Shown here: positions 2,849 to 36,599 of the stretch, in pieces | Layout of the letters: each line of letters begins with the position of its first letter | How positions within the stretch are numbered: the first letter of the stretch is position 1 | Virus record (IMG/VR): IMGVR_UViG_3300033149_006567 | Location: 33,843 to 97,842 of that record | Direction: 5' to 3' (one strand) | Length of the DNA stretch: 64,000 nucleotides | Source of the DNA: a virus | Program-made: the position numbers and the translations under genes | The notes under the pieces: generated by a model | Databases searched by the model: none | The model's input: the letters and a program-made list of their open reading frames with translations, nothing else | What the model was told of the DNA's origin: nothing

Positions 2849-5101
2849 ATGCCTTCTCGTCAGACTCAAAAATTTAAGGTTAGCTCGGTAAATTACTTGG
2901 CCGTCTCTGATGTATTTTTAAACATACAGAAACGGCACGAGGATATCGTCTATAAGACTTTTACTGGAGATGAGGACGCCCTGATATCTTACCTTAACGC
3001 AGTCCGAATATCCGCAGATGACAATCTGTCTATTGTAGATAGGTCTGCAGAAAAGTTGGTGGAAAATCGCATAGAAAGTGCCTCCGAGTATTCAGTTGAA
3101 GAAAGTGCCCTGACGATAACAACTGAGACTGACGAGGTTTTGATTACTGACGAGTTTTTGACAGGGAATTCTCTTGAGGAGCCCGTACCCCTCTTCTATA
3201 AACACCAGATCCCTGAATCTCATTTCGACCCAGACAGCGGACATAAGATCGTATCCATGAGACTCCTAGATGACTCTTTGGAAGAGGTTTCTGTAGCCGA
3301 TTATTCTTTAGATTCTTCCACGGGAACTCTTTTTAATAATTTTGAGCACGAGTTCGACGCAGGAGACAATTCCTACAGTCTCTATTATCTTCAATATACG
3401 GTTAAGGAATCGTCGGCAGTCGTCAAAAACTATACGGTGCTTTTAGATAATGAGCCAGTTTACGCTTTGGCCGAAGCCTCTGATTTGAATGAGTGGGGAG
3501 CTCTCATCAACGATGGCCGGAAGGTTTTTCTAAGAGAAGAGCTATTCGATGGGACCTATCAATTTACATTTCCTTCGATTGCAGACTATGCTTTTCGAGA
3601 AGTTTTAACTAATCGCATAAAGGTTTTGCCTCCTGTCTTGGGGTCGAGAAGTGATCCTTGGTATATACGAGTCTCTAATGGCCTGTTTTATTCGACGGTA
3701 GACGGAATAACCTACAAGTATTATGTTCCTGAGATTACTGGCCAAACCTTTAATCCCTATTATCCCTACAGGAAGGCCACTAAAGAGCCAGCCGCTATAG
3801 TTAATAAGAACTTGATCAAGCTCGGCTATGACAAGATATATGAAGACGGGTCTACTCTGCATTTAGATGTCTTTATATACGATGCAGATGATTATCTAAA
3901 GTATGCCTTTACTACTGACAGTTCCCTTCATGGGACTGCGGCGGGGAATGGGCGAACCGAGGTGGTTTTGTATTCCAACTTGGAAGCTGGGGGTGACTAT
4001 GGTATCCGGAGCGTAGATCATTTGTATGGATTTGTTGATATACGAGGGATGGACTTGTCTTCTTCTTGTACGGCGAAGGCTACCTATTATTATGAATATT
4101 CGGATCTTCCCATTAATTCCGTGAATTTCAATTTCACTCAGAATCAAGACATCATTCATTATGATATAGTTCTATTCCTCATCCCCGACACTTTAGTCTC
4201 GTCTTCAACTCAGACGGTATACCTGCTAAAGGTGGACGAGAATGGGCAGGTAGTCTATTCTGATTGGACTTCTTTTGACAATACGGAGCGGTCCCTAGAT
4301 GGCAAGCCCCTCTTTTATCGAGAGCCCCCAAGTTGGTGGACAGTTTTGCATGGAAGTGACTATTCGAATTTCGAAGAAACATATACGGTAAATGGGAACG
4401 GATATTACTTGACTTTAGCTGAGATTCATCCTGTTCTGGCCTACAAGCTTGACGGGATAGAAGATTCGGATATACGTCAGCAGGGCGGAGGGCTTCGGGG
4501 GGACTCTTCTTTGGTGAATACAGAGGAGGCTCAGAGCTGTTGGGATGTAATGAAGTGGGATGGCAGGCATTATCCGGGAGCAGGTTCTTTTCTCGTTGAA
4601 GTTCCTTCGAGTGTTTTGTCTGGGGCAGGTGGGAGTTTTTATTCAGATGAAGTTCGAGAAGTCATAAATAAGCATATAGGATACGGGCTTTATCCGGTTA
4701 TTAGAGGCTATGGAGTTGACCCTCGGATCACTAGCGTAGAACCTGGTGATGGGTCGATAACGGTGGTTTGGTCTCATGGAAATTCAGATGCCTATTATAA
4801 AATATATATAGCGAAAACTCTTCAGGGACCTTTTACGGCGGTCAATGATTCCAGTCCAGTTCAAGAGAACAGTACAGAAAATTCGTACACCATTACGGGA
4901 CTGGAAAATGATATGATTTATTATATATTTGTAGTTGGAGGATTTATCTCGGGTAGTACGTGGACCGAGAGTTCTGAGCAAATTATCGGGCCGGGGAATT
5001 TGACGGCCAAGACCGGAAGCACCTTAGAGTATGTTAAATGTAAGCCTGGGATCCCACGCGGCTCAAACTTTTTGAGTCAAAGATTTACGGTAATTTCCTG
5101 A
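2849..5101 (+). CDS. Virion protein with C-terminal fibronectin type III domain
   Basis: The protein has 750 residues. Most of it is beta-rich sequence without a recognised motif. Residues about 630-725 have the pattern of a fibronectin type III domain: a start like ITSVEPGDGSITVVWS, then YYKIYIAK, then YTITGLENDMIYYIFV. Such Ig-like domains are common on phage tail and baseplate proteins, where they may bind carbohydrate. The start lies 5 bases after the previous stop. It probably belongs to the tail or baseplate. Confidence 0.6.
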   Translation: MPSRQTQKFKVSSVNYLAVSDVFLNIQKRHEDIVYKTFTGDEDALISYLNAVRISADDNLSIVDRSAEKLVENRIESASEYSVEESALTITTETDEVLITDEFLTGNSLEEPVPLFYKHQIPESHFDPDSGHKIVSMRLLDDSLEEVSVADYSLDSSTGTLFNNFEHEFDAGDNSYSLYYLQYTVKESSAVVKNYTVLLDNEPVYALAEASDLNEWGALINDGRKVFLREELFDGTYQFTFPSIADYAFREVLTNRIKVLPPVLGSRSDPWYIRVSNGLFYSTVDGITYKYYVPEITGQTFNPYYPYRKATKEPAAIVNKNLIKLGYDKIYEDGSTLHLDVFIYDADDYLKYAFTTDSSLHGTAAGNGRTEVVLYSNLEAGGDYGIRSVDHLYGFVDIRGMDLSSSCTAKATYYYEYSDLPINSVNFNFTQNQDIIHYDIVLFLIPDTLVSSSTQTVYLLKVDENGQVVYSDWTSFDNTERSLDGKPLFYREPPSWWTVLHGSDYSNFEETYTVNGNGYYLTLAEIHPVLAYKLDGIEDSDIRQQGGGLRGDSSLVNTEEAQSCWDVMKWDGRHYPGAGSFLVEVPSSVLSGAGGSFYSDEVREVINKHIGYGLYPVIRGYGVDPRITSVEPGDGSITVVWSHGNSDAYYKIYIAKTLQGPFTAVNDSSPVQENSTENSYTITGLENDMIYYIFVVGGFISGSTWTESSEQIIGPGNLTAKTGSTLEYVKCKPGIPRGSNFLSQRFTVIS

Positions 5102-5113
5102 TCGGAGTCGAGG

Positions 5114-5668
5114 ATGGCAGTAACAGTTTATTGGGCTAGTGATAATTCGGGCACTTTGTTAAATCAGGTCGTAGATCATGGATCTGTAGCAAAAGGGAAT
5201 AATAGCGGGGCAACCGCTTTTTATCTATATCATAATGGCCAGAATGACATAACTAATTGCGGCTTTTACATACAGCCTCGGTCTGGGTTGTACGAGGGAG
5301 ACTTTTCTGCTCTCACAGATTACCAAGAGCTTATCGATTGGGGGGACTCTACGAACGCTAATGGGTTTGGCGGCTATATGATAAATATGAATGCGACGGG
5401 AGCTTGGGCTAATGGTTGGGCGGCAGTCGGAGATAAATTTCCTGCGTACGGCTTTGTTTGTCGAAGTGGAGTGGCAGATTCTTTTGGTAATGCTCAGACT
5501 TTGATGTCAGAGATGGGGTGTTCGTCTTCTGGCGTGGTACAGAATAATTATCCGAATGGATATGGAATTAATGTCCGGTTTCAATGTAGAATAGCGGTTC
5601 CCTCCAATGAGACTTCGTTGGGTCAAAGGGAAATCGATCTTTGTCTTCGATATTCTTATACGAGTTAA
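5114..5668 (+). CDS. Unrecognised virion-cluster protein
   Basis: This 184-residue protein is rich in Gly, Asn, Ser and Tyr, contains four cysteines, and has no signal peptide or membrane segment. Its stop codon overlaps the next start (TAATG at 5666-5670), so the two genes are probably translationally coupled. Position and composition suggest a virion component. No family was recognised. Confidence 0.55.
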   Translation: MAVTVYWASDNSGTLLNQVVDHGSVAKGNNSGATAFYLYHNGQNDITNCGFYIQPRSGLYEGDFSALTDYQELIDWGDSTNANGFGGYMINMNATGAWANGWAAVGDKFPAYGFVCRSGVADSFGNAQTLMSEMGCSSSGVVQNNYPNGYGINVRFQCRIAVPSNETSLGQREIDLCLRYSYTS

Positions 5669-6117
5669 TGATGCGCGTGAATGGTTGGATTAAAAGATTC
5701 GTGGATGGTTCCTGGGAAGAGGGGAAAGACAAGGAAGTATTAGCCGGAAGAGCTAGCTGGTCTAGGGGTCGCCTAGAGGGCATGCTGAGGGCAGAGGTTC
5801 ATCACGGAAGATATTTTCTGGGAATTTGTGGTCCTGGAGAATATTGGCAGTCAGATGATTTTTCTGTAAATCTTTCTTCAGGAGAGACGCAGTTAGAGAC
5901 GAGGAGGCTGCAGAGGAAGATAGTGCTTCCCGACACTAACATGGTAGTGCAGAGAAAAGAAAGCGAGTTGCTTGTGTTTGTGTATACGGGTTCTCCTCCG
6001 TACATGCCAGGAGAGTTTCTTTGTGTGAGCCCAGAGATGTTGGGAAAATGGCTGACGCTTGAATTAAACTTGAAGGACGACTCTCTCCAGATGAACATTT
6101 TGCCGGAGCGGATATAG
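5668..6117 (+). CDS. Unrecognised small protein of the virion cluster
   Basis: The start is taken at the ATG of the TAATG overlap with the previous gene (a second ATG follows at 5671). It gives about 149 residues with a mixed alpha/beta look and a basic N-terminus (MMRVNGWIKRF). The stop TAG overlaps the GTG start of the next gene. No enzyme motif is visible; a structural or assembly role is suggested only by the neighbours. Confidence 0.55.
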   Translation: MMRVNGWIKRFVDGSWEEGKDKEVLAGRASWSRGRLEGMLRAEVHHGRYFLGICGPGEYWQSDDFSVNLSSGETQLETRRLQRKIVLPDTNMVVQRKESELLVFVYTGSPPYMPGEFLCVSPEMLGKWLTLELNLKDDSLQMNILPERI

Positions 6118-8108
6118 TGGCACAATATTTAAATAAGTTCAAAAGTTCTATAAGCAAGAATCAGTTCGAAAAGCTCACCAGACTCCTAGATGCCCAGAAG
6201 AGGCGCGGGCAGTTTTCTACCATTGATGAATTCCGGAAACATCTTGATTCTGTGATGAAGGAGTTGTTTGCAAAGAGGATAACTCCCTTACTCGAGGTTT
6301 TTCTTGCTATTCCTGGAGAAGTTGCCGATGTAGAAACTTACAATTTTATGCTTGAAAGAATTCAGGATGATTTGGAGGTTGCCTTTAAGGAGATAGCTAA
6401 TATAGAGGAAGTTCTTCGGGGTCATCGAGCTGTTGTTCAGGATGTACTTCTTAAGGGCCTGAAGCATGCTGCGGCGGATCTAGAAAATAAAATATCTACT
6501 TATGAGTTGATGGTTACTTCTGGTCATGGATTTAATTCAGCTTTGGCTAGCAATTTTGACGGAGCGATTAGCCCTAGGCTTAAGCGGGCTGAGGATGTGG
6601 GGGGATATTTTAAAGATCCTCGCACTGGCAAGGCCATATCTGCTGACTATGACATATATTTGGACCAAATGGGAAAGTTTTTGACTCTCCCCGTACAGTC
6701 CTCTAGCTACGTCAATATAGTCGGAGTGCGTCAGATATTTGACTCAGATGCCACAGCTACGGAAAAGAATGTAGAACCAGAGGATTCTTCTGTTTCCAAT
6801 TTGATAGACGGGGAAAATGGAACTTATTGGATGGTTTTATCCCTGTTCGAGGACAACAAGAATGACAAGTTTCCTGCGGAAGTTAAGACCAGAATTGAAC
6901 TCGATCTTGGGGGGGCCAAAGAAGTAAATTTCTTGGAGATAGAACCGGCGCTTTTGAATGACGTGACACTTGACTCTATGTCTTATATAAGGAAGGATGG
7001 GTCGGTGGAGACTGTTGCAGGCGTATCGGAAACAATTGGCCGCCATAGGGTCAAGATCCTTTTTAGAAAAATCGGAGCTAAAAAAATAATTTTGACTTTT
7101 TCCAACGAGACCTCTCATGCTTTGGCTTATGAAGTTCCAGATACCGAAGTCACCCTAGAAGAGCTCCTTACTGAGCCCGTAAATGAAAAGATTAGCCAGA
7201 TGCAGGTCTCTCTGACCGAGAGTTTTAGCGGAAGGCAGTTCCAGATTGGATTTGACAATATTCGAGTCGGATTGGCCAAGTACTTGGATAAGGGCGTCTT
7301 CATTAATAAGGCCCTGGAACTAAAAAGTAAGCCTGCGAGAAGTTTCGGTTTGCAAGTTGAAGAGGAGCGTCCGGCGAATTCTACTGCCCTCCCTTCTGGC
7401 ATTAGTTTTACCGAGGACACTTACGATGATGGTGACACAAAATTTATGTACGGAAGCGTAGAATATTGGCTTATTCGAAATTCCTACGACAGCAATGAGC
7501 GATTTATCGCATCTGATTTTTTACCTATCCTACCTTTGGAAGTTAGTCGAGTCAATCATGAACGATTGATACTGACGCATAAGTACGGGGCCACTTCAGT
7601 TGTTAATGATTCGGGAACAACGATGTTTTATACTGATGCGACAAATGGGAACATAAAGGTCTATCGGAATGGAGAATTAACTCCGTTGACTCAATTGACT
7701 CCTGGAGATACTGCAGACGGATGGGTGGAAGAAAGCAATCTCGTTAACACTTCTTCCGGGAATGGGACTCCCATGTCTTATGGCATCCGGATTACTCAGC
7801 CAAAAGCCGGAGATATTTTTACCGTTAGTTATGACCCAATAGTTTCTAATGTCCTAACTATTTCGACGGCTAGCGGTGCAACTCAACAAAATCTAGTGGA
7901 TTTACTAGGAGATTTGTCGGCCAGAAGTTACACGGACCAGATTCTTTTATCTTCCGACCACAAGGGGGCTTTTGAAATAGAATCTTCAAAAGTATATCTA
8001 ATGACTATTTTGCGACGAAACACTTCGGATGAATTTTTGTCTCCTCTGGTAAAAGAGCATCTTTTAGGAGTCAGCACTAAAAATCCGAGCAAGTTCCAGG
8101 GATTTTAA
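6117..8108 (+). CDS. Baseplate/adhesin-like protein, paralogue 1 of 3
   Basis: The protein has 663 residues and a GTG start overlapping the previous stop. The first 140 residues are helical (heptad-like, with RLLDAQKRRGQF and IANIEEVLRGHRAV). A beta-sandwich-like region follows, with the pattern LIDGENGTYW then IELDLGGAKEVNFLEIEP. This resembles a discoidin or F5/8-type C module, a fold that often binds carbohydrate. The same order of parts recurs in the next two genes, and the three are adjacent, so they look like diverged duplicates. A role in the tail tip or baseplate is inferred. Confidence 0.6.
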   Translation: MAQYLNKFKSSISKNQFEKLTRLLDAQKRRGQFSTIDEFRKHLDSVMKELFAKRITPLLEVFLAIPGEVADVETYNFMLERIQDDLEVAFKEIANIEEVLRGHRAVVQDVLLKGLKHAAADLENKISTYELMVTSGHGFNSALASNFDGAISPRLKRAEDVGGYFKDPRTGKAISADYDIYLDQMGKFLTLPVQSSSYVNIVGVRQIFDSDATATEKNVEPEDSSVSNLIDGENGTYWMVLSLFEDNKNDKFPAEVKTRIELDLGGAKEVNFLEIEPALLNDVTLDSMSYIRKDGSVETVAGVSETIGRHRVKILFRKIGAKKIILTFSNETSHALAYEVPDTEVTLEELLTEPVNEKISQMQVSLTESFSGRQFQIGFDNIRVGLAKYLDKGVFINKALELKSKPARSFGLQVEEERPANSTALPSGISFTEDTYDDGDTKFMYGSVEYWLIRNSYDSNERFIASDFLPILPLEVSRVNHERLILTHKYGATSVVNDSGTTMFYTDATNGNIKVYRNGELTPLTQLTPGDTADGWVEESNLVNTSSGNGTPMSYGIRITQPKAGDIFTVSYDPIVSNVLTISTASGATQQNLVDLLGDLSARSYTDQILLSSDHKGAFEIESSKVYLMTILRRNTSDEFLSPLVKEHLLGVSTKNPSKFQGF

Positions 8109-16779: not shown

Positions 16780-17775
16780 ATGTTAGGTTTAGATGTAGGG
16801 ACGTCTTATGTTATTGGGGCCAGGGAAACTGACAAGGGGATAACTTATCGAGAGTTTCGGGACGCCTTTTTCAGGATTAAGCCCGCTACGCCCATAGCGG
16901 CCAAGATGATAGAGAAGGGTTTGAAAGGCACCAAATATTTTAAAGATTCGGATGGAAGTTTCGTTGTTATTGACAAGGAGGCTATTGTCAAGGCAGTTGA
17001 GAGGAACTCGTCGGCTCTAAGGCCTCTTGCTCGAGGGATTTTATCTCCCAAAGAGAGGGATGCTCGCAGGGTATTCAAGTTCCTTTTGGGCAAATTACTA
17101 GGCAAGCCGAAAGAAAAGAAGGAAAAGCTTGTTTATTCGATTCCTGCGGCTCCGGCAGACGTATCCTCAGACGATTTCGATGTTGGATATCACTGCGATG
17201 CCATTGGGAACGATCTTAAGGAACTCGGTTTTGATCCCAGCCCCTTAAATGAGGCAGAGGCAATTTGTTATGCAGAATTAGAAGAGGATGATTATACGGG
17301 CGTTTCTATTTCGGCAGGCGCGGGAATGCAAAATGTTTGTGTCATGTCTTCTGGTGAGCCAGTATTAATATTTAGTCTAGCCAGGTCTGGAGATTATGTT
17401 GATCGTATGGCTGCGGCTTCTACAGCGGAACCGGATTCTGTTGTTCAAATGGAGAAGGAGGCTGGAGATTGGGAAGTGGGGAAGGAAAATGAGAATCGTA
17501 TTTTGAGCGCTGTTTCCATATATTACGTCAGACTTATTAAATACGTAGTAGAAATGCTTTCGAAAAAGCTTAATTCAGCAGATGAACTTCCCAGGTTTCC
17601 TTCAGCGATACCAGTTGTTTTGTCTGGGGGAACTTCGCTAGCGAAGGGGTACGTAGAGGAGTTTAAAAAGCAGTTGGCCCCGGTTGATTTGCCGTTCGAA
17701 GTCAAGGAAGTTCGTCACGCTAAGGAGCCCCTTAGGGCTGTCGCAAAAGGCTGCTTAATCGCCGCGTCTTTATAG
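16780..17775 (+). CDS. Actin/Hsp70-fold ATPase (ParM/PilM/FtsA-like)
   Basis: The 331-residue protein shows the three nucleotide-binding signatures of the actin/Hsp70 superfamily in order: phosphate-1 LGLDVGTSYV at the N-terminus, phosphate-2 VSISAGAGMQNV near residue 172, and the adenosine motif VVLSGGTSLAKGY near residue 282. The segment EAEAICYAEL before phosphate-2 is also typical. The family includes filament-forming segregation and cytoskeletal proteins. It starts 1 base after the tagged small gene and is followed by glycosyltransferases. Whether it forms filaments, positions DNA or scaffolds assembly is not readable here. Confidence 0.65.
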   Translation: MLGLDVGTSYVIGARETDKGITYREFRDAFFRIKPATPIAAKMIEKGLKGTKYFKDSDGSFVVIDKEAIVKAVERNSSALRPLARGILSPKERDARRVFKFLLGKLLGKPKEKKEKLVYSIPAAPADVSSDDFDVGYHCDAIGNDLKELGFDPSPLNEAEAICYAELEEDDYTGVSISAGAGMQNVCVMSSGEPVLIFSLARSGDYVDRMAAASTAEPDSVVQMEKEAGDWEVGKENENRILSAVSIYYVRLIKYVVEMLSKKLNSADELPRFPSAIPVVLSGGTSLAKGYVEEFKKQLAPVDLPFEVKEVRHAKEPLRAVAKGCLIAASL

Positions 17776-17783
17776 GACCCCAG

Positions 17784-18890
17784 ATGGCTAAAAAACTTGC
17801 TTTAAATAAGAACGGGGTTGTTACTAAAAGAATTAATATGCCAGACCTTAAGGTTGTTCCAACGACTAAAGCTGGGCGCAGATTGGTTCGGTTGCATAAG
17901 TTGATAGTCGGAGAGTCTCCTAAGATATGTATTGTTCGAGGTGGAGGAATAGGCGACCTTTTGATGACTACTCCTGCTGCTAAATTTATCAAGAAGCAGT
18001 ATCCTCATGTCCATCTGACTTATGCCGTTGACTTTCATTATTTAGACGGGGCTCTTCCTTCAGTTTTAGAGGGTAATCCTTATGTTGACAAGGTAGTCCA
18101 CTGGAAGTCATATGACGAAGATGATTTTGATGCTGTTTTAAATCTTCAGTGTCCTTGTGTTGCTCACGAAAGACCAGGCGCGAAACCGATTAGCAGAATA
18201 GACCTTTTTGCTCGTCACCTGGGTATTTATGAGATGGAAGATAAGCGGCCCGTTTACGTCGGATCAGCGGAAGAGGACGCAGAAGTTGACGCTTGGTTAA
18301 ATAGTCGGCTTCATTATGATAGTTCTCGTCATAAATTACTTGTTGTGAGTCCTTTTTCTTCTGCTGGTGGACGTAGTTTTCCGATTGAGAGGATGAAAGA
18401 GACTCTTAGGTATGTTAAACAGGTTCTTCCTGAGGTAAAGGTGGTTGTTTGCACTCATGACTCAGATTTTCTCAAGGACACGTACTGGGATTCTGTTGCA
18501 GATGCTGTAGCTCATGAATTTAAAGTTCGAAAATTTGCTTCTCTTTTGAGTTTTTCTCGATTAGTTCTTTGTCAGGATTCAGCTGCTCTTCATCTTTGCG
18601 GGGCACTTGACATTTCTGTTTTGGCCCTTTTTGGTTCCACCGATCCTCGCGCCAGAGTAAATCATTACCCTAAGGCGGTCGGGTACTGTCCAGGTCTTAA
18701 GCTGCAGTGTTTTCCATGTTGGTATAATTACGGAAATTGTTCTCACAGTACTTGTTGGCGTTTGATAGAGCCGAAAGACGTGGCCGGTATTATGGTAAAT
18801 ATGTTGACTCAAAAACCAGTTGTGTCCGAGTTTCTATCCCTCGGAGAGAAAAAACCTCCGAGAAATCGCATTCGAACTGAAACCCTTTAG
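17784..18890 (+). CDS. GT9 (heptosyltransferase-like) glycosyltransferase
   Basis: The 368-residue product has a GT-B fold pattern: KICIVRGGGIGDLLMTTPA near residue 47 is the family 9 N-terminal loop, and FSRLVLCQDSAALHLCGAL with LALFGSTDPRARV is the C-terminal donor-binding region. A cysteine cluster (LKLQCFPCWYNYGNC) near residue 313 occurs in many GT9 enzymes. The first 22 residues match the tag of the gene at 16347 and precede the catalytic domain, which is unusual. It opens the carbohydrate island. Donor and acceptor are unknown. Confidence 0.75.
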   Translation: MAKKLALNKNGVVTKRINMPDLKVVPTTKAGRRLVRLHKLIVGESPKICIVRGGGIGDLLMTTPAAKFIKKQYPHVHLTYAVDFHYLDGALPSVLEGNPYVDKVVHWKSYDEDDFDAVLNLQCPCVAHERPGAKPISRIDLFARHLGIYEMEDKRPVYVGSAEEDAEVDAWLNSRLHYDSSRHKLLVVSPFSSAGGRSFPIERMKETLRYVKQVLPEVKVVVCTHDSDFLKDTYWDSVADAVAHEFKVRKFASLLSFSRLVLCQDSAALHLCGALDISVLALFGSTDPRARVNHYPKAVGYCPGLKLQCFPCWYNYGNCSHSTCWRLIEPKDVAGIMVNMLTQKPVVSEFLSLGEKKPPRNRIRTETL

Positions 18891-18903
18891 CCCGAGTCCC
18901 CAG

Positions 18904-20178
18904 ATGTCTAAAAAAATTAAGCTACTTGCTTGGTGCGATTTGGTTGCGCATACAGGTTTTTCAAATGTAGCAGAGCATGTCTTGAAGGCACTTTATTCTA
19001 CCGGGTTATATGATATAGATGTTTTAGCCATCAATTATCACGGAGACTTTCTCGATAAAGAAAGATATCCTTATCAAATAGTTCCGGCTAAACTGAAGGA
19101 CCCCAAGGATCCCTATGGAAAGGGCATGTTCGTTAGGTCTCTAGAGAATAAGGCCTATGATGCTGTTTGGATAATAAATGACGTGTATGTGGTTGAACCT
19201 GTTTCTAGGGCCGTGACGCAGATGAAAGAGGCTTTTCAGAATAGAGGGAAGACGCCTCCCTGTATTTTCTATTACTTTCCAATAGATAGCAAGCTTTTGC
19301 CTGGATATTCGGGGATGATCAAGGTAGCTGATGTTCCTGTTGCTTATACTCAGTTTGCTTTGGATGAAACTCTGAAGACAGTCCCCTCTCTAAAGTCCAA
19401 GAATATCCCGATTATTTATCATGGAGTCGACACTTCTGTTTTCCGCCCCCTTTCGCTCGAGGAGCGCTCTAGATGGCGAAGAGATTATTTGAAAGTCGAA
19501 GATGACACTTTTGTTATTATTAACGTCAATAGAAACAGTGAGAGAAAACAGTTAACTAGAACTCTATTGGCTTTTGAGGAGTTTAGAAAACATGTTCCGA
19601 AGTCTAAGCTTTATGTGCATGCAGCCCCCAGAGATTCTGGCATTGATCTTTTTTCTGCTTGCAATGATCTAGGATTTGACATAAGGAGGGATGTCATATT
19701 TCCTGACCCAAGAAATTTTTCGCCATCTAAGGGGTATCCGGCTGAGGTGTTAAATCGGTTTTATAATGCAGCTGATTGCTTTCTGACGACTACCCTAGGC
19801 GAGGGATACGGGTTGTGCGCCCAAGAATCTCTCGCTGCTGAGATTCCCGTAGTTGTTCCCGATAATACCGTTCATCCTGAAATTTTTGGAGAAGATGGAG
19901 AACGAGCTCTAATATATGATTGCAAAGAACTTATTTGGGTAGACAACACTGCCTATCGCCCCCTGGGTCGAGTGGAAGACATAGTCGAGAAATTGCTCCA
20001 GGTTTATAACGAGCCCCTAGATGCCAAGCGATCTCGAGCTAAAAGAGGACGTGAATGGTGTGTTAAAAATGACTGGAAAGAGATAGGGGAGCAATGGATA
20101 AGTCTCTTTAATAGAGAGCTTTCTTCTAGAAAAGTTAAGGGGGAAGATACTTCTCGCATTAAGGCTAGTTTGGTATGA
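18904..20178 (+). CDS. GT4-family glycosyltransferase
   Basis: The ATG at 18904 begins MSKKIKLLAWCDLV, giving 424 residues and the usual GT-B length. The N-terminal acceptor domain contains the loop AHTGFSNVAEHVLKAL. The C-terminal donor domain has INVNRNSERKQLTRTL and LGEGYGLCAQESLAAEIPVV, the E-x7-E-type signature of GT4 enzymes. It follows the GT9 gene and precedes the intein-bearing glycosyltransferase, so the three probably act on one glycan. Confidence 0.75.
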   Translation: MSKKIKLLAWCDLVAHTGFSNVAEHVLKALYSTGLYDIDVLAINYHGDFLDKERYPYQIVPAKLKDPKDPYGKGMFVRSLENKAYDAVWIINDVYVVEPVSRAVTQMKEAFQNRGKTPPCIFYYFPIDSKLLPGYSGMIKVADVPVAYTQFALDETLKTVPSLKSKNIPIIYHGVDTSVFRPLSLEERSRWRRDYLKVEDDTFVIINVNRNSERKQLTRTLLAFEEFRKHVPKSKLYVHAAPRDSGIDLFSACNDLGFDIRRDVIFPDPRNFSPSKGYPAEVLNRFYNAADCFLTTTLGEGYGLCAQESLAAEIPVVVPDNTVHPEIFGEDGERALIYDCKELIWVDNTAYRPLGRVEDIVEKLLQVYNEPLDAKRSRAKRGREWCVKNDWKEIGEQWISLFNRELSSRKVKGEDTSRIKASLV

Positions 20179-20185
20179 GGAAAAA

Positions 20186-22450
20186 ATGTCTCTAAAGATT
20201 AGATGGGTAGGTCCTTACTCGGATCCTTGTTATGATGATCAGACTGAGGTGTTAACTTCTAGCGGTTGGAAATTTTTCAAAGATATTTCTTTCGAAGATG
20301 GTCTTGCCACTCTGAATGAATGGCATATCATAGAATACCAAAAGCCTTCTCATATAATAAACAGAGAGTATGAGGGCGAAATGTATTACCTGGACGCTCC
20401 AAGGGCTAAAATAAATATTTGTGTGACTCCTAATCATTCTATGTACGTGACTACGGAAAGCGGTAGGCGTTCAGGGCGAGCGAATGCGTGGCGTCTCGAA
20501 GAGGCGAGGGATATATATGGGAAAACGCGAGCTTTTAAAAGAGATGGTCGGTGGCGAAAAAAGGGGAAGGAGCATTTTCGGATATGTGGAAGAAAGATAA
20601 AGGCGGAGCATTGGCTGGAGTTTTTGGGATATTATCTTAGCGAAGGATCTGCAACTATTTACAAAAGGCCTGCTGGTGTTACAAAAGGGGGCAGGCATCC
20701 GGTATATAGGGATCGTTACGTGAATAGGACTTACGAGCGTTCTGAGTCAACAGAGTACATATTGCAAATCAGGCAGGTTAAAGGCGAGGAGAATCGGGTT
20801 CGAATGGCAGAGGCGGTTCGGCGAGTGACGAATAATTCGGTAAATACTCGAAACAAAGACGGGCGAATACTGGTGCACGACAAAGATCTGGTGCTTTATT
20901 TGAAGCGATTTGGAAATTGCTGTACCAAGTATATACCGAGAGACGTGTTAAACAAATGCTCTAAGGAACAGCTGGAGGTACTTTTCGAAGCTCTTGTTTT
21001 GGGAGGCGGAACAGACAACAGAAAGAAAGGTGGCGGGGTTATTTACAAGACCTTTTCCAAACGCCTTCGGGACGATTTTCTGGAGCTATTGCTTAAAGTC
21101 GGATTTTCTGGGCACTATAAGCGTGAGATCGTGAAGGGCGAAGAGATAAGAATAAACGGCAGAGTTTGCCATGCGAAAGAGGATGGCTGGAAAATAGGGG
21201 TACGATTTAAAAACCGCGGTTTTTTGAAAAAATCATCTCAATGTTCGGTCCCGAGTAAACATGAAGAAAAGATAGTCCCCTATAAGGGGCGAATTTATTG
21301 CGCTACGGTCCCTAACCATGTGCTTTTTGTAAGGCGAAATGGCTGCGTTTTATGGTGTGGGAACTCGGGCTACGGTAGTAACTCGAGAAAGTTCGTGCAT
21401 GCCCTATATAAGTTGCAAAAAAAATACGACTTTCGTCTTGGAACTATGCCGGTTTCTTTCGAAAAACAAAGGGCGGATTATGGAGAGGCCGGAAGAATTT
21501 GTAAACGCCTGGAGGAGCATGCACTTCAAGAGGACATCCGGATAATTAACACTACTCCAGAGTTTTATGATCGTTTGAAAAGGCCCGGAGTGTTAAATGC
21601 TGCTTATGTTACATTCGAACTAGATGGTATTCCCGATTTATGGGTCAGAGAGCTTAACAAGATGGACGCGGTATTTACTACGGCGGAGTTTTGTGCGGAA
21701 GTGTTTAGGAAGAGTGGGGTAAAAACGCCAGTATTTTCTGTCCCCCCGGGCTTGTTTCCCGAAGATTATCGGAGAGTGGAACCGTTGTCCTCCCTAGATG
21801 TCCCCGAAGATGTCTTTTCTTTTTATTCTATCTTTCAGTGGACTCCTCGCAAAAATCCCCAGGCTTTACTTCATGCGTATTGGTCGGAATTCACTGGACA
21901 AGATGATGTTTGTCTGGTTCTGAAGACTTACAAGAATGATACGTCTCCTCAGCAAGTTGATATGCTCAGGAGAATTATTGCTCAGGAAAAACGGGGTTTT
22001 CGGCTTGATCATCACCCCAAGATATTCTTTATCTCTCAATTGTTGAGTGCTAGTCAATTAGAAGATTTACATTTGTCTTGTGACGCCTTTGTCTCGACTA
22101 CGGCAGGGGAAGGAAATTTTATCCCCGCTTTTAACGCCATGGCATATGCTAAGCCAGTAATAGTTACGGGGTGGTCTGGGCATACAGAATATTGTCGACC
22201 CGAATATAATTATTTGTCTAAATACCAATTGAGGCCAGCTCACTCGATGAGTTGGTGTGCCTGGAATGAGGCTCGATTTAATTGGGCCGATGTTAATATA
22301 CTTCATTTTCGAAAATTGATGCGAGAGGTTTATGAAAATCGAGCCCAGGCGAAGAAGAAAGCTGAGAAAGGACAGCGATTTTTATTTAAGGAGTTTTCTT
22401 GGGAAAAAATGATTAAAAGACTCGTAGATGGTATTGAGGAGGTTTTGTGA
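20186..22450 (+). CDS. GT-B glycosyltransferase interrupted by an intein
   Basis: The precursor is 754 residues. Residues 1-14 (ending VGPYSDP) and 394-754 form the extein; joined, they give about 375 residues starting VGPYSDP-SGYGSNSRKF, the glycine-rich acceptor loop of GT-B enzymes. The donor domain has SFYSIFQWTPRKNPQALL and TTAGEGNFIPAFNAMAYAKPVIV. The intein occupies 20228-21364. Without splicing the active-site loop is broken, so activity should depend on splicing. It is the third glycosyltransferase in a row. Confidence 0.75.
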   Translation: MSLKIRWVGPYSDPCYDDQTEVLTSSGWKFFKDISFEDGLATLNEWHIIEYQKPSHIINREYEGEMYYLDAPRAKINICVTPNHSMYVTTESGRRSGRANAWRLEEARDIYGKTRAFKRDGRWRKKGKEHFRICGRKIKAEHWLEFLGYYLSEGSATIYKRPAGVTKGGRHPVYRDRYVNRTYERSESTEYILQIRQVKGEENRVRMAEAVRRVTNNSVNTRNKDGRILVHDKDLVLYLKRFGNCCTKYIPRDVLNKCSKEQLEVLFEALVLGGGTDNRKKGGGVIYKTFSKRLRDDFLELLLKVGFSGHYKREIVKGEEIRINGRVCHAKEDGWKIGVRFKNRGFLKKSSQCSVPSKHEEKIVPYKGRIYCATVPNHVLFVRRNGCVLWCGNSGYGSNSRKFVHALYKLQKKYDFRLGTMPVSFEKQRADYGEAGRICKRLEEHALQEDIRIINTTPEFYDRLKRPGVLNAAYVTFELDGIPDLWVRELNKMDAVFTTAEFCAEVFRKSGVKTPVFSVPPGLFPEDYRRVEPLSSLDVPEDVFSFYSIFQWTPRKNPQALLHAYWSEFTGQDDVCLVLKTYKNDTSPQQVDMLRRIIAQEKRGFRLDHHPKIFFISQLLSASQLEDLHLSCDAFVSTTAGEGNFIPAFNAMAYAKPVIVTGWSGHTEYCRPEYNYLSKYQLRPAHSMSWCAWNEARFNWADVNILHFRKLMREVYENRAQAKKKAEKGQRFLFKEFSWEKMIKRLVDGIEEVL
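20228..21364 (+). mobile_element. Full-length intein with LAGLIDADG homing endonuclease
   Basis: These 379 codons begin with Cys (CYDDQTEVLTSSGWKFFKDI, splicing block A) and end CVLWCGN followed by Ser, the C-terminal Asn and nucleophile +1. Block B is seen in CVTPNHSMYVTT. Two LAGLIDADG-type motifs, LEFLGYYLSEGS and LFEALVLGGGT, are about 120 residues apart, as in monomeric homing endonucleases. It lies in frame within the glycosyltransferase. The penultimate residue is Gly rather than the usual His, a known variation. Splicing and cutting are inferred from intact motifs. Confidence 0.85.
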
Positions 22451-24150: not shown

Positions 24151-24864
24151 ATGCGGAAGTACTTCAAGGTGTACGGTCTTCAGAGAACTGGGACCAATTA
24201 TATGCATCGTCTTTTGGCTAAGAATTTCAAGGTCGGTCCACTTTGGGAGAAGACGTACATATCGCACAAAGACATGTACAAGCATGCTCCCCCAGGGGCG
24301 ATTGTCGATAGGCTCCTAGAAGGCGCCATACCTCCGTTCAGCAAGGATAATGTATTTTTTGTTGTTATGGTGAAGCATCCCTATTCTTGGTTGGTAAGTC
24401 GCATGCGATTGGCCAAGAAAACTATTGAGGGAAACGAGGGGGAGGCTCTGGATAGACTGAAGGAATATAATCTCAAGTACAGAGAGTGGCTTCGATTCCT
24501 CTTTTGTAAGCCTTCTTGTTCCATTCTGGTTCGATACGAAGATTTAGTCAAAAATTACAAGGCACCTCTGGGGATTTTGCAGGCAGCCTTTAACCTAGAA
24601 ATGACTGGAGACTCGCTTGAGAATGTTCGGGGGGTTATGCGGAAAAATAATACGGAAGACAAGGGTCAGTTATTTGATGTCAATTATTATCTTAAGAAGT
24701 TTTACCTGGAAGAATATCCGGAGCAATTTAAACGCCCTGTTTATCGAGCGATAGATTGGGGTGTAGTGCGTGAGCTGGGATATCGAGATGCATTACGTAA
24801 AGATATTTGGGGCTCGTCGGACGGCGACGAACTATTTGACGGTTTTGCTCCCCCTCAATTTTGA
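24151..24864 (+). CDS. Sulfotransferase-like protein 1
   Basis: The 237-residue product has a sulfotransferase P-loop near its N-terminus (KVYGLQRTGTNYMHRLL, the 5'-phosphosulfate loop). It also has VVMVKHPYSWLVSRMRLAK, matching the 3'-phosphate-binding strand and helix, and LVRYEDLVKNY. These are the PAPS-binding elements of Golgi/bacterial sulfotransferases. Its ATG follows the previous stop directly. Its 3' end overlaps the next sulfotransferase gene by 77 bases. The acceptor is unknown; the sugar-gene context suggests a glycan. Confidence 0.7.
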   Translation: MRKYFKVYGLQRTGTNYMHRLLAKNFKVGPLWEKTYISHKDMYKHAPPGAIVDRLLEGAIPPFSKDNVFFVVMVKHPYSWLVSRMRLAKKTIEGNEGEALDRLKEYNLKYREWLRFLFCKPSCSILVRYEDLVKNYKAPLGILQAAFNLEMTGDSLENVRGVMRKNNTEDKGQLFDVNYYLKKFYLEEYPEQFKRPVYRAIDWGVVRELGYRDALRKDIWGSSDGDELFDGFAPPQF

Positions 24865-25417
24865 TATTGAAATCGTCAAGGGTCTTTCTTTTAAGCACAA
24901 CCCTCCCACAGGTCGTTTCGTGGGGGCGATGAAGTCTGATTCTGGGAGACTCAATAAAACTTCTCTGTGTGCTATTGTTATGGTTAAACATCCATATCCC
25001 TGGGTACTTAGTCGAGCTAGATTTGCCAACATAAAAAAAATGAGAATGGGACGACACGAGTCTTTTCTCGAGAAATTTATCGCAGATTATAATTTGAAAT
25101 ATAAGGCTTGGCTGGATTTCATTAGTAAGTTTCCCGAAAATACCTCCTTGGTTCGTTATGAGGATTTGCTCGATCATCCCAAGAAAGCCACCCTTAAACT
25201 CATGCGAAAATTCGGGTGGAAACTTAAAAAGAGTTGGTTTCGAGATATAAAGCAGGTTGTGGCGCCGGGAGAGATAATTAGGGAGGGCAGAAAATTTAAT
25301 AAATTTTATTATACTCAAAAAAGGTATCTAGAAGAGTTGTCCCCCGATATCAGGAAGTTTCTGAACAAAAAATTTGACTGGAAGATGGCTGGAAAAATGG
25401 GGTATAAACCTGAATGA
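24788..25417 (+). CDS. Sulfotransferase-like protein 2
   Basis: The ATG at 24788 gives MHYVKIFGARRTATNYLTVLL, which aligns with the N-terminus of the preceding gene, so this start is preferred over an upstream one. The 209-residue product repeats the pattern: P-loop, then IVMVKHPYPWVLSRARFAN, then LVRYEDLLDHP. The two adjacent genes are evident paralogues. Overlap of their ends (24788-24864) in different frames suggests duplication followed by reuse of the 3' end. Confidence 0.7.
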   Translation: MHYVKIFGARRTATNYLTVLLPLNFDIEIVKGLSFKHNPPTGRFVGAMKSDSGRLNKTSLCAIVMVKHPYPWVLSRARFANIKKMRMGRHESFLEKFIADYNLKYKAWLDFISKFPENTSLVRYEDLLDHPKKATLKLMRKFGWKLKKSWFRDIKQVVAPGEIIREGRKFNKFYYTQKRYLEELSPDIRKFLNKKFDWKMAGKMGYKPE

Positions 25418-32691: not shown

Positions 32692-33633
32692 ATGTCTCAA
32701 GACTACCTTAACTCTGGTGGCTATGACAGCTATAGCTTTTGGGGTGACATTGACGAACATGTCACCAGAATCAAGCCAGTTTCAAAACACAGCAAGAACT
32801 TTTATCCTTCAGAAGCTTCGGTTGTTTTAACCGATGAGTACGGAGATCGCAAAGTAGAGGGAGCTTGTTTAAGGAAGGCCTTCTATCGTATCAAGGCTTT
32901 TCAGCCTGCCCCCCCGAGAGTATATTCAGAATACATATTCCAGCAGGGACGTGATTGTGAGAAGGCTATCATCAATTGGGCCAAAGAGCGGGGTCGCTGG
33001 GTAGACAATAGCCATAAATTTTCCACTAGTGAGCTGGGGTTCCCCATTAAGGGAGAGCTTGACGGGATATTCATAGAGCCACATACGGGGAACCTGTACA
33101 TAATGGAAGCAAAAACTTTTTATGGATATTACGCGACTAAAGAGATAATGGGCAACTATAAGCAAAAGGGATTCCCTAAGATGTCTCATTTGCTTCAATT
33201 GCTTCTCTATGTCTACCTATTCAGGCCCAACAGTGGGTTTAATTTCACTGACTATGAGATTCCTTATGGACGTCTTGTTTATTGGGCTCGAGATAACGCT
33301 GCCAATCGAAAAACTTTCAAAGTTGAATTAAAGCAAGAGGGCGAGATATTTTTTCCTGTGGTCGAAGGCGAAGTTGTTCGTACTTTTACCGTGAATGACA
33401 TGATTGCTCGATATCGAAAGCTTAAGGAACATTTGGATAACGATGAGGTTCCACCTCGCGATTTTGAACATCAGTATTCTCCCGAAAAGATAAGGGATTT
33501 TTTTGAAAAAGGAAAAGTTTCCAAGAAAGCCTTTGGTGATTGGCAGAAGAGGAAGAAAGTGCCGGGAGACCCCCTTTGTTCCCCGACTTATTGTCCCTAT
33601 TTCCACCATTGTTACGAACGAGCCAACCTCTAA
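32692..33633 (+). CDS. PD-(D/E)XK nuclease, Cas4/RecB-like, with C-terminal cysteine cluster
   Basis: The 313-residue protein has a first cysteine region (EGACLRKAFYRIKAF), a helix with GRDCEKAIINWAKERG, then IKGELDGIF and LYIMEAKTFYGYYATKE. These give the D...ExK of the RecB nuclease core, followed by HLLQLLLYVYLF. The C-terminus CSPTYCPYFHHC supplies three cysteines that, with C59, resemble the Fe-S site of Cas4/AddB nucleases. It lies 17 bases before the primase-helicase, so a role in phage DNA replication or recombination is likely. There is no CRISPR array nearby. Confidence 0.7.
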   Translation: MSQDYLNSGGYDSYSFWGDIDEHVTRIKPVSKHSKNFYPSEASVVLTDEYGDRKVEGACLRKAFYRIKAFQPAPPRVYSEYIFQQGRDCEKAIINWAKERGRWVDNSHKFSTSELGFPIKGELDGIFIEPHTGNLYIMEAKTFYGYYATKEIMGNYKQKGFPKMSHLLQLLLYVYLFRPNSGFNFTDYEIPYGRLVYWARDNAANRKTFKVELKQEGEIFFPVVEGEVVRTFTVNDMIARYRKLKEHLDNDEVPPRDFEHQYSPEKIRDFFEKGKVSKKAFGDWQKRKKVPGDPLCSPTYCPYFHHCYERANL

Positions 33634-33650
33634 AACTAGCAGGTATCCAG

Positions 33651-36599
33651 ATGCCTAAGATCAAGAATCTTGAAGAACTGATGGACAAGTTGACCCCTAA
33701 GCTTGAACATTATCTTCGTTCTTTCGGGATAGAAACTGAAAGAAACTTTAGCTGCATTAGCCCCGACCATGAAGACAGAAACCCATCTTGCAGTATTCAA
33801 GGAAATGACAAGAGGACCTTTTTTTGTCATGGCTGTGGGATCGAAGGCGGGATATTCGCTGCTTGCCACTATCTAGAAGGCAAGCCTTTGCATGGGCAGC
33901 ATTTTGTCCAGGAAAATGTTCGTTATTTAGCGGATAAGTTTGGCATAGAATACGAGATGGAAGAGGCCTCTGAGGCGGAGTTGTATCGGTTTGACACTCT
34001 GCGGGCTTACCAAGCGGCCGCCGAATACATCCGAAGAGTTCCCAAAAGCAAGAAGGCTCTAAAAGAGATTAAGAGGCGGGGATGGACTGAAGAATTGTGT
34101 TTTCGCGAGGGAGTAGGCGCTGTTGAAGATTTTAAAAGCTTTAGGGAGTATCTAAAGGACAAGGGGTTTGCCGCAGGGTTTCTAGATGACATAGACCTTG
34201 GTCGCAAGGACATGTTTAACGAAGAAAACCTCATTTTTACTATTCGAGATGAAACGGGTCACCCCGTAGGCTTTGCCTGTAAAATTTTATCTGACTACAA
34301 CAAGGGCGCCAAGTACGTAAATCAAAAAACCACTGGCCAGAAGTGCAATATCTACAAAAAGGGAGAGCGTCTTTACGGGTTTGATTATGTCATGCAGGTT
34401 TTTCGGGATGACCCCCCATTTATCTATGTGTTTGAAGGTTACAGTGACGTTCTGACAGCTCGTCAGAATGGTATCGAAAATTGTTGTGCCGTTGGGGGTG
34501 TAAATTTTACCTATGAGCATCTTAGGCTCTTAAAGACCAATAACTTTTACAAGATATGCCTGTGTTTGGACGGAGATGCGAGAGGACAGGGAGCCACATC
34601 TCGTTTATTAGATAATATATTCTCTGATCATAAAGATGTAGACTTATATGTCATAGATATTCCCGAAGAAGAGGATCCTGACGGTTACATCAGGAAACAT
34701 GGAATAGAAAAATTTAAAAGGCTCCAGCAAAAAACGGCCTTTGAGTGGCGGCTCAACCAGTTCGAAGACTTAGGAGATGATGAGGCTATTTGCGCGGCCA
34801 TGATACCTCTTGTGGTAAATGAGCCCAGCTATATTAAGCAAGAAAAGATGGTCAGTCTTCTTTCTAATCACACAGGAATTTCCCTTCAAGCTATCCAAAG
34901 CGAAGTCCAACGTCAGCAGAGTGACTTTGAGAACAAAAAATCCCTGGAGAGGCGAGATATCATTAAGAGAATGATAAAGCGCCTAGAATTTGATCCCGGA
35001 CAAGCCGAAGGGGTAATAGCAGAGACCGAGTCAGAGTTGCATAATTTGATGCGTAAGTATAACGAGGACTCACTCTCTCCCGATTCTTTTCTCAGCCTCC
35101 TAGAAGCCCAGAAACGAGAGCAAGAAGAGAAGGGAGACGAGTTTAGTGGATTCATACTTGGAGAAGATCTAGAGGAGTTTCAGAACGTTTTAAATGGAGA
35201 GTGGAAGGAAGATGTTTTTTGTGTGCTTGGGGGCAGAAGTAACGCCGGGAAGTGCCTTCCGGAAAGTGCAATGGTACTAACTGGTTCAGGAGAATACAAA
35301 AGCATCAAGGATATGGTTGAAGGAAAAGACGATAGCGTGATAGCGATGGATAAGTTTCATAAAATGGTCCCAGCTAAGGTCATCGGTTGGCAAAATGTTG
35401 GAGAGAAACAATGCGCTAATATCAAAACGATTGACGGGATAAGTATCGAGGCCGCTTATACTCATCCGTTTTATACGCTGAACGGGTGGAAAAAAGTGTC
35501 GGAATTGCAAAAAGGAGATAGGGTCGCCATTGCTTCAGATTTGACCTGTTTGAACAAGGGGTATGAACGAGGCATTTCTGGAGATGACACTGAACTTCTG
35601 GGGCACCATATAGGAGACGGAGCTATTACTGAAGGAGATATATGCTTTGCGGAAATCACAGAAATAGAAAACGTTGGGAGAAAGGAGTGCTATGACCTGG
35701 AAGTCGAAAAGCATCATACTTTCTTGGCTAATGATTTTGTAGTGCACAATAGCAGCTTGTGCGTAAAACTCGGAGTGGCTATTGCGTCTCATTTGGAGAA
35801 TGATGCTTGTGTTATTTACCATTCGATAGATGATTCGGCCAGGCAAATACTTCCCAAGTTTGTTTGTGTTTCCGAAGGCAGTCGTTTATTAGAGATTAAC
35901 CAGGTGGTGAATCCTGGATACCATATGGCCCAAGGACGAAAAGATATTGTGCAGCGAAGGAATGCTGGGTATGAGACTCTTCGCCAATTAGGGGCTGAGG
36001 GACGATTGATTCTTAAGGATTCGGGGAATGGAAATTCTCTGGCTTTTTCGGAGTCTCTTGTTAAGTACTATAGAAGCAAATACCCCTCTAGGCGCCTTGT
36101 TTATATATTAGATAACTTTCACAAACTCAGCGACCTTGCCAGTTCTGATGTAGATCAAGGGACCTATAAGGCTATGTCTCAGCGGATAAAAGAGATGGCA
36201 TGTAAGTATAGGGCTGCTGTGATTGCTACTGTTGAATACACTAAGCTTGTGCCGGGAACTCGTCCAACCAACTATAATATATCCAATAGCGTACAAATAG
36301 ACTATGACGCCAATTTAGCCCTACACCTTTATAATGAGCTTCACGAGATTAGAGGCCGGGCTGAAAATTATCATGTTGTCACTGTTAATTCTGAAGTAAT
36401 GAAGCTCCCCCGTATTGAAATGGATTTTGGAAAGAACAAGATCACAGATTTTAAGGGAAGTCTTTGCTTTAATTTCTATCCATATTGCTCAGATATAGAG
36501 GGGGTTCGGTGGGACGAAGTAGAGAGGGAGAAAGAAGAGAGAAAGCCGGAGCCTTCGAGTAGCTCGAGTTCTGGGAGGTATGAGAATATTTTTAAATAG
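33651..36599 (+). CDS. T7-type primase-helicase with an intein in the Walker A motif
   Basis: The ATG at 33651 (MPKIKNLEELMDKL) gives a 982-residue precursor, about 816 after splicing. A CHC2-type zinc finger is at the N-terminus (C35, H40, C59, C62). A TOPRIM domain follows, with YVFEGYSDVLTARQ near 258 and CLCLDGDARGQGA near 303. The RecA-like helicase has Walker A GGRSNAGK-SS, split by the intein after K534, Walker B LVYILDNFHKL near 817 and NLALHLYNE beyond. It would prime and unwind at the replication fork. Its C-terminus is Glu/Ser-rich. Confidence 0.85.
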   Translation: MPKIKNLEELMDKLTPKLEHYLRSFGIETERNFSCISPDHEDRNPSCSIQGNDKRTFFCHGCGIEGGIFAACHYLEGKPLHGQHFVQENVRYLADKFGIEYEMEEASEAELYRFDTLRAYQAAAEYIRRVPKSKKALKEIKRRGWTEELCFREGVGAVEDFKSFREYLKDKGFAAGFLDDIDLGRKDMFNEENLIFTIRDETGHPVGFACKILSDYNKGAKYVNQKTTGQKCNIYKKGERLYGFDYVMQVFRDDPPFIYVFEGYSDVLTARQNGIENCCAVGGVNFTYEHLRLLKTNNFYKICLCLDGDARGQGATSRLLDNIFSDHKDVDLYVIDIPEEEDPDGYIRKHGIEKFKRLQQKTAFEWRLNQFEDLGDDEAICAAMIPLVVNEPSYIKQEKMVSLLSNHTGISLQAIQSEVQRQQSDFENKKSLERRDIIKRMIKRLEFDPGQAEGVIAETESELHNLMRKYNEDSLSPDSFLSLLEAQKREQEEKGDEFSGFILGEDLEEFQNVLNGEWKEDVFCVLGGRSNAGKCLPESAMVLTGSGEYKSIKDMVEGKDDSVIAMDKFHKMVPAKVIGWQNVGEKQCANIKTIDGISIEAAYTHPFYTLNGWKKVSELQKGDRVAIASDLTCLNKGYERGISGDDTELLGHHIGDGAITEGDICFAEITEIENVGRKECYDLEVEKHHTFLANDFVVHNSSLCVKLGVAIASHLENDACVIYHSIDDSARQILPKFVCVSEGSRLLEINQVVNPGYHMAQGRKDIVQRRNAGYETLRQLGAEGRLILKDSGNGNSLAFSESLVKYYRSKYPSRRLVYILDNFHKLSDLASSDVDQGTYKAMSQRIKEMACKYRAAVIATVEYTKLVPGTRPTNYNISNSVQIDYDANLALHLYNELHEIRGRAENYHVVTVNSEVMKLPRIEMDFGKNKITDFKGSLCFNFYPYCSDIEGVRWDEVEREKEERKPEPSSSSSSGRYENIFK
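35253..35750 (+). mobile_element. Mini-intein in the helicase P-loop
   Basis: These 166 codons run from Cys (CLPESAMVLTGSGEYKSIKDM, block A) through AAYTHPFYTLNGWKKVSEL (block B). They end with GRKECYDLEVEKHHTFLANDF (block F) and VVHN followed by Ser. The splice residues are intact. The short piece ELLGHHIGDGAI is what remains of a LAGLIDADG motif; the rest of the homing endonuclease is gone. The insertion lies between K and S of the GKS motif, a favoured site for inteins in phage helicases. Confidence 0.85.

What the first reader, a model, noticed from the sequence alone, without database searches (positions are those of the whole stretch)
20186..22450. A homing-endonuclease-bearing intein inside a glycosyltransferase
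The intein (20228-21364) has intact splice blocks and two LAGLIDADG-type motifs and splits the acceptor-loop glycine motif (VGPYSDP / SGYGSNSR). Inteins nearly always sit in replication or nucleotide-metabolism proteins at conserved active-site loops. A carbohydrate-modifying host protein is unusual and means that sugar transfer depends on protein splicing. The placement at the active-site loop follows the normal intein rule.
Basis: partly seen in the sequence, partly recalled or inferred. Interest (0 to 1): 0.72.

Follow-up and report, generated by a model that had tools for sequence, protein, structure and literature searches.

The report
Self-splicing intein in a phage glycosyltransferase
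A tailed phage carries a self-removing protein insert (an intein) in the substrate loop of a sugar-transferring enzyme; similar enzymes in other uncultured viruses carry inteins at this site and at three other conserved sites, so glycosyltransferases are a recurrent and apparently overlooked intein home.

Summary
Confirmed. ORF 20186-22450 (754 aa) is a GT-B/GT4-type glycosyltransferase (PHROG phrog_2170) interrupted after Pro14 by a 379-aa class 1-type intein (20228-21364). A profile of 61 related inteins built without the window finds residues 15-393 exactly (322 bits), and the AlphaFold model (pLDDT 91) matches solved inteins. The joined 375-aa extein aligns across the junction with about 80 intein-free viral homologues.

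Two corrections. (1) The LAGLIDADG endonuclease is probably dead: its second catalytic Asp is Gly (codon 21005-21007), where 59 of 61 relatives and the three other alleles at this site have Asp. (2) The host is not a one-off. The same site carries inteins in three further viral contigs, and related phage glycosyltransferases carry inteins at three other conserved motifs (FQW|TERK, EGxGL|C, GMPW|S), some with two inteins; a second GT family also has one. The two site groups tested in a tree are separate clades, so separate invasions. Between two alleles dN/dS is 0.08, and intein dS exceeds extein dS threefold.

Splicing, and dependence of sugar transfer on it, are inferred, not shown. No glycosyltransferase intein turned up in the searchable papers or annotated phage records.

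The parts
20186..22450 (+). Precursor ORF (754 aa): glycosyltransferase interrupted by an intein
   Evidence: phrog_2170 glycosyltransferase E 3.7e-22; intein-bearing thymidylate-synthase and RNR profiles match the intein part
20186..20227 (+). N-extein, 14 aa (MSLKIRWVGPYSDP): first strand and start of the N-terminal glycine loop of the GT
   Evidence: D13 in 33 of 36 homologues; modelled as a strand in the precursor model, mean pLDDT 91 over residues 1-10
20228..21364 (+). Intein, 379 aa, Cys1 ... Gly-Asn, +1 Ser
20228..20272 (+). Block A (CYDDQTEVLTSSGWK)
20414..20440 (+). Block B (NICVTPNHS; Thr67 and His70)
20615..20650 (+). LAGLIDADG motif 1 (LEFLGYYLSEGS), acidic residue present
20978..21013 (+). 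LAGLIDADG motif 2 (VLFEALVLGGGT), acidic residue lost (codon GGC at 21005-21007)
21281..21364 (+). Blocks F and G (YKGRIYCATVPNHVLFVRRNGCVLWCGN)
21365..22450 (+). C-extein: remainder of the GT (SGYG..., QWTPRKNP donor-phosphate motif, GEGNFIPAFN = E-x7-E loop with second Glu replaced by Asn)
18820..20178 (+). Adjacent intein-free paralogous GT (phrog_2170); its counterpart in contigs L079 and L170 carries an intein at EGWGL|C

Best explanation
It is a class 1-type LAGLIDADG intein that sits in-frame between Pro14 and Ser15 of a phage GT-B glycosyltransferase, inside the conserved D-x-S-G-Y glycine loop of the N-terminal domain. The precursor is made as one 754-aa chain. Cys1 attacks the Pro14 carbonyl, the chain moves to Ser+1, the terminal Asn cyclises, and the 375-aa transferase is joined. 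The penultimate residue is Gly instead of His, which is normal for this clade. The intein spreads between phages by homing at this site, and this copy appears to have lost the second catalytic Asp of its endonuclease, so it is probably now an inherited, non-homing allele kept because precise loss is rare and splicing must work. Shown: intein identity and boundaries, predicted fold, GT identity, junction, alleles at the same site, other sites, loss of the Asp. Inferred: splicing, the catalytic steps, loss of nuclease activity, past homing, dependence of sugar transfer on splicing.
For: Profile without the window recovers residues 15-393 at 322 bits. Full-length match to the annotated 'hypothetical intein' of Corynebacterium phage P1201 thymidylate synthase, 29%. 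AlphaFold model of the intein pLDDT 91, pTM 0.90; best PDB matches TliVMA intein 7qsu (E 2.4e-16), PI-PfuI, PI-SceI. GT part of the precursor model matches GT4 GT-B enzymes: chlorovirus GT 3oy2, GlgM, PimB'. Joined extein is about 29-36% identical end to end to intein-free viral GTs. Intein alleles at the same D-x|SGY site in L179, L170 and L201, 46-48% identical to this one against 30% to inteins at another GT site, while exteins are 31-36% identical; they form one clade, 100/100. L179 against L170: intein dN/dS 0.076, intein dS 1.28 against extein dS 0.45, as expected for a functional element not simply co-inherited with its gene. Motif 2 Asp present in 59 of 61 relatives, Gly here. Penultimate Gly in 58 of 61; a phage RDF intein with penultimate Gly splices completely (PMC5050341).
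Against: No splicing experiment exists. The Pfam Intein_splicing model does not reach E 1 on this sequence, though it also scores weakly on relatives such as L167. The loss of the motif 2 Asp has not been tested for nuclease activity. The GT itself has Asn at the second Glu of E-x7-E, where 31 of 36 relatives have Glu, so its activity after splicing is not certain. dS values near or above 1 are close to saturation and rest on one pair.
Confidence: 0.95

Rival explanations
1. The insert is a decayed intein or bacterial intein-like domain that no longer splices, so the gene is a pseudogene or makes two cleaved fragments.
For: The endonuclease has a catalytic loss and the GT has an altered E-x7-E, which could be signs of decay.
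Against: All splice-site and block residues of the clade are present, including Cys1, Thr67, His70, Asn379 and Ser+1; the 754-aa frame is open and identical in two contigs; alleles at this site elsewhere are under strong purifying selection. A +1 Ser and C-terminal Gly-Asn argue against a bacterial intein-like domain.
Confidence: 0.04
2. Conditional splicing: the intein is kept as a switch that times or gates glycosylation (for example by redox state acting on Cys1 or Cys358).
For: Inteins sit at catalytic or substrate-binding motifs of the GT at four different sites in related phages; regulated splicing is reported for a mycobacterial DnaB intein (abstract of PMC6195587).
Against: About 80 homologous GTs have no intein; a selfish element at conserved DNA explains the sites equally well; nothing here tests conditionality.
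Confidence: 0.06
3. The endonuclease is still active in spite of the Asp to Gly change, and the intein is an actively homing copy.
For: Motif 1 is intact and the rest of the nuclease domain is mostly modelled with high confidence; some monomeric LAGLIDADG enzymes keep nicking activity with one acidic residue (own knowledge).
Against: The lost residue is near-invariant in relatives and present in the three other alleles at this site.
Confidence: 0.12
4. The interruption is an assembly chimera joining a GT gene and an intein from another molecule.
For: The records are metagenomic.
Against: Exact in-frame ends at a conserved loop, a 100% identical second contig over 10.7 kb, the same arrangement in three divergent contigs, similar G+C in intein and extein (0.44 and 0.43).
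Confidence: 0.01

Closest known systems
Corynebacterium phage P1201 thymidylate synthase (ThyX) intein (DQ499600, annotated 'contains hypothetical intein')
   Same: Full-length alignment, Cys1 ... Gly-Asn|Ser, LAGLIDADG domain with two motifs
   Different: Only 29% identical; host is a nucleotide-metabolism enzyme; second LAGLIDADG motif keeps its Asp (SDG)
Inteins of mycobacteriophages surveyed in PMC5050341 (TerL, RDF, nucleotidyltransferase, ThyX, methylases, RecB-like and others)
   Same: Phage inteins at active-site motifs; class 1 variants with penultimate Gly that splice
   Different: Hosts there are nucleic-acid or nucleotide enzymes and a portal protein; the paper's text holds no 'glycosyl' term
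PI-SceI, PI-PfuI and TliVMA inteins (solved structures)
   Same: Hint splicing domain plus LAGLIDADG endonuclease, best fold matches
   Different: About 10-18% identity; cellular hosts (V-ATPase, ribonucleotide reductase; own knowledge)
Alleles at the same GT site in uncultured viruses (L179, L170, L201)
   Same: Same insertion point D-x|SGY, 46-48% intein identity, one clade
   Different: Second LAGLIDADG motif intact (GDG); exteins only 31-36% identical to this one
Phage GT4-like glycosyltransferases (phrog_2170)
   Same: Joined extein matches over its full length; a phrog_2170 paralogue lies next to it in the window
   Different: Most are intein-free; this one has Asn in place of the second Glu of E-x7-E

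Membership tests
Class 1 intein | N-terminal Cys or Ser nucleophile in block A | tested here: met
   Cys1, invariant in 61 relatives
Class 1 intein | Block B Thr and His | tested here: met
   Thr67 and His70
Class 1 intein | C-terminal Asn and +1 Ser, Thr or Cys | tested here: met
   Asn379 and Ser+1
Class 1 intein | Penultimate His (common, not obligatory) | tested here: not met
   Gly378; this position is Gly in 58 of 61 relatives, and a penultimate-Gly phage intein splices experimentally (PMC5050341), so this does not exclude membership
Class 1 intein | Hint splicing fold | tested here: met
   AlphaFold pLDDT 91; best PDB hits are inteins
Class 1 intein | Precise in-frame insertion relative to an intein-free homologue | tested here: met
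Class 1 intein | Protein splicing activity | not testable with these tools
   needs expression
Active LAGLIDADG homing endonuclease | Two LAGLIDADG motifs each ending in an acidic catalytic residue | tested here: not met
   Motif 1 Glu139 present; motif 2 Gly260 where 59 of 61 relatives have Asp
Active LAGLIDADG homing endonuclease | Cleavage of the intein-free allele | not testable with these tools
   needs biochemistry
GT-B fold, GT4-type glycosyltransferase | GT-B fold | tested here: met
   Best PDB matches of the precursor model are GT4 GT-B enzymes
GT-B fold, GT4-type glycosyltransferase | Sequence match to GT family models | tested here: met
   phrog_2170 E 3.7e-22; Pfam Glycos_transf_1 and Glyco_trans_1_4 only below the curated cut-off
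GT-B fold, GT4-type glycosyltransferase | R/K donor-phosphate motif and E-x7-E | tested here: inconclusive
   QWTPRKNP present with R and K invariant; first Glu642 present, second is Asn650 (31 of 36 relatives Glu)

The most novel reading that the evidence does not exclude
Glycosyltransferases of uncultured phages are a regular intein host class in which several unrelated inteins have settled on catalytic motifs, sometimes two per enzyme and in two neighbouring enzymes, and part of this is kept because splicing times or gates surface glycosylation during infection.
Probability: 0.1. Interest if true: 0.8.

Novelty: new member of a known kind. Interest (0 to 1): 0.52.

Why it matters
Inteins are usually described as clustering in DNA replication, repair and nucleotide-metabolism proteins, and this is used to argue either for regulatory roles or for target-site bias. 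Here a sugar-transferring enzyme family has been entered at four different conserved motifs by inteins of more than one lineage. That supports the conserved-motif rule (conserved DNA, imprecise loss not tolerated) over a link to DNA metabolism as such, and gives a comparative system in which intein gain, stacking, nuclease decay and mini-intein formation can be followed in one enzyme family. It also warns that such GTs will be misannotated as split or endonuclease genes in viral metagenomes.

Tried and rejected
Tested and rejected: bacterial intein-like domain or plain Hint domain (C-terminal Gly-Asn, +1 Ser and full block set present); assembly chimera (identical second contig, same arrangement in other viruses); a different junction (no shift of the two ends improves the GT profile score by more than 1.4 bits). 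The Pfam Intein_splicing model misses this intein and LAGLIDADG_3 is below its cut-off, so negative Pfam scans are not informative for this clade. Mixed alignments of GTs and inteins for folding the precursor were misaligned and were replaced by a GT-only one, which leaves the intein part of the precursor model at low confidence; the intein was modelled separately. phmmer of intein and extein against PDB sequences gave nothing useful. Annotated phage records gave no GT with an intein, and the EGxGL|C pattern had no hit in GTDB genomes; that pattern is specific and does not exclude others. PMC4760082 (intein clustering survey) is not held.

Full report
What is there. The ORF at 20186-22450 (+) encodes 754 aa. 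Residues 1-14 and 394-754 belong to a glycosyltransferase; residues 15-393 (20228-21364) are an intein of 379 aa. PHROG scans give glycosyltransferase phrog_2170 (E 3.7e-22) for the C-terminal part, and the intein-bearing thymidylate synthase profile phrog_85 (E 1.5e-18) for residues 14-129. Pfam is weak on both parts, which is why a routine annotation would miss this.

Is it an intein? The whole insert aligns end to end with the intein annotated in the thymidylate synthase of Corynebacterium phage P1201 (29%), with an unannotated one in Prevotella phage Lak-A1, and with inteins in some 80 loci of IMG/VR. A profile of 61 of these, built without the window, recovers exactly residues 15-393 (322 bits). 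Block residues are those of the clade: C1, Y2, T6, E7, T67, H70, R369-R370, G378, N379 and Ser+1. The penultimate residue is Gly in 58 of 61 relatives; a mycobacteriophage RDF intein with penultimate Gly splices fully, and changing it to His slows it (PMC5050341). The AlphaFold model of the intein has pLDDT 91 and pTM 0.90, and the best solved matches are the TliVMA intein, PI-PfuI and PI-SceI.

The endonuclease. Motif 1 (FLGYYLSEGS) is intact. Motif 2 reads ALVLGGGTD; the catalytic Asp, present in 59 of 61 relatives, is Gly (GGC codon at 21005-21007). The three other alleles at the same site have GDG. So this copy is most likely a nuclease-dead, non-homing allele.

Is the host a glycosyltransferase? 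The joined 375-aa extein aligns from end to end with intein-free viral GTs, about 29-36% identity, across the junction...GPYSDP|SGYGSNSR... against ...GPIFDN-SGYAKACR.... Joining raises the score of a GT profile from 367 (C-extein alone) to 381 bits. In the AlphaFold model of the precursor the GT part is confident and matches GT4 GT-B structures: a chlorovirus GT (3oy2), GlgM and PimB'. The insertion point lies between D13 (33 of 36 homologues) and S394-G395-Y396 (33-36 of 36), the glycine loop after the first strand of the N-terminal domain. The QWxxRKNP motif is kept; the second Glu of E-x7-E is Asn here (Glu in 31 of 36), so donor specificity or activity may differ.

Not a one-off. DNA-pattern scans of IMG/VR found inteins at the same D-x|SGY site in L179 (IMGVR_UViG_3300037264_004923), L170 (3300036760_000325) and L201 (3300033143_006241). 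These are 46-48% identical to the window intein, against 30% for inteins at another GT site; exteins are 31-36% identical. The four form one clade with support 100/100, next to inteins in an ADP-ribosylglycohydrolase (L089) and in papain-like peptidase genes (L091 by Pfam, L093 by its NSWG motif).

Related phage GTs carry inteins at three more places. FQW|TERK in the donor-phosphate motif: L174, L193, L194, L196, a separate clade, 100/100. EGxGL|C in the E-x7-E loop: all nine hits of a motif-plus-block-A pattern in 2.9 million viral contigs were GTs with inteins, phrog_2170 wherever scanned. This pattern asks for a Cys after EGxGL followed by block A-like residues, so it selects for inteins at this loop and says nothing about how common they are. 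GMPW|S, a Ser1 intein, in L079. L079, L174 and L194 have two inteins in one GT; in L079 and L170 the adjacent paralogous GT carries one as well. L175 at the EGxGL site is a 141-aa mini-intein without endonuclease. A different GT family (phrog_7162, E 8e-42) has an intein of the window's clade at GGS|SHLKDL in L167. The same EGxGL pattern had no hit in the GTDB genome collection (84,980 species).

Selection and mobility. Between alleles L179 and L170, intein dN/dS is 0.076 (splicing part 0.058), with dS 1.28 against 0.45 for the extein. That means purifying selection on the intein, and more silent divergence in the intein than in its host gene, as expected if the intein was exchanged separately. 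This is one pair with high dS, so it is suggestive only.

Mechanism. The best reading is standard class 1 splicing with Ser+1, leaving an uninterrupted GT, plus past homing at a conserved site followed by nuclease decay. Splicing, and the need for splicing before sugar transfer, are inferred from the position of the insert (it separates the first strand and glycine loop from the rest of the N-terminal domain) and were not tested.

Relation to the literature. Reviews stress DNA replication, repair and recombination hosts (PMC5874633); the mycobacteriophage survey lists terminase, RDF, nucleotidyltransferase, ThyX, helicase, RecB-like, methylase and portal proteins and does not mention glycosyl enzymes. 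Searches of the held open-access library for inteins with glycosyltransferases found no report of a GT intein; InBase and the 2016 clustering survey could not be consulted, so priority is not certain. In annotated phages no GT intein was found.

Context. The virus record is 97,842 bases; it encodes a baseplate J protein, so it is a tailed phage. The GT sits in a cassette of sugar-related genes (GT9-type, two phrog_2170 GTs, Gfo/Idh/MocA oxidoreductase, a sulfotransferase-like gene). A second intein lies in the primase-helicase of the same virus.

Noticed in passing
window 33540-36599 (intein about 35277-35750): DnaG-type primase/helicase ORF with a second, smaller intein (about 158 aa, Cys1 ... 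HN|S) inside the Walker A motif (GGRSNAGK|C ... HN|SSLCVKL); it has only a remnant LAGLIDADG-like stretch.
   Followed up: partly
window 49203-51923 (-) and 53723-54676 (-): DNA polymerase III alpha is split: the PHP domain and the polymerase part are separate ORFs, with two unrelated genes (a calcineurin-like phosphoesterase, 52864-53415, and 52362-52877 without Pfam match) between them; no split-intein sequence is evident at the ends and Rfam shows no intron in the window.
   Followed up: partly
window 16780-17775: Actin-family protein matching Pfam Volactin (E 3e-58), a family named after a haloarchaeal actin (own knowledge), in a tailed phage just downstream of the tail genes.
   Followed up: no
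window 22133-22135 (precursor residue 650): The glycosyltransferase has Asn where 31 of 36 relatives have the second Glu of the E-x7-E motif, which may change donor use or activity.
   Followed up: partly
window 24151-25417: Two adjacent genes, the first with a Sulfotransfer_3 match and the second similar by eye, within the sugar-modification cassette.
   Followed up: no
L079:74-2350 and 3001-6597: Two neighbouring phage glycosyltransferase genes that together carry three inteins (EGWGL|C; EGFGL|C; GMPW|S).
   Followed up: yes
L145, L153, L163 (inteins at 3001-4071, 3001-4065, 3001-4044): Inteins of the same clade in viral UDP-glucose dehydrogenase genes (Pfam match tested for L145; the others by near-identical flanks), another sugar-metabolism host.
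   Followed up: partly
L109, L118, L096: Single viral ORFs that appear to carry more than one intein (anaerobic RNR, DNA methylase, protease-like).
   Followed up: no
L004:694-2820 (Prevotella phage Lak-A1): An intein in an unannotated large-phage ORF of unknown function, read with TAG as Gln; about 35% aligned identity to the window intein.
   Followed up: no
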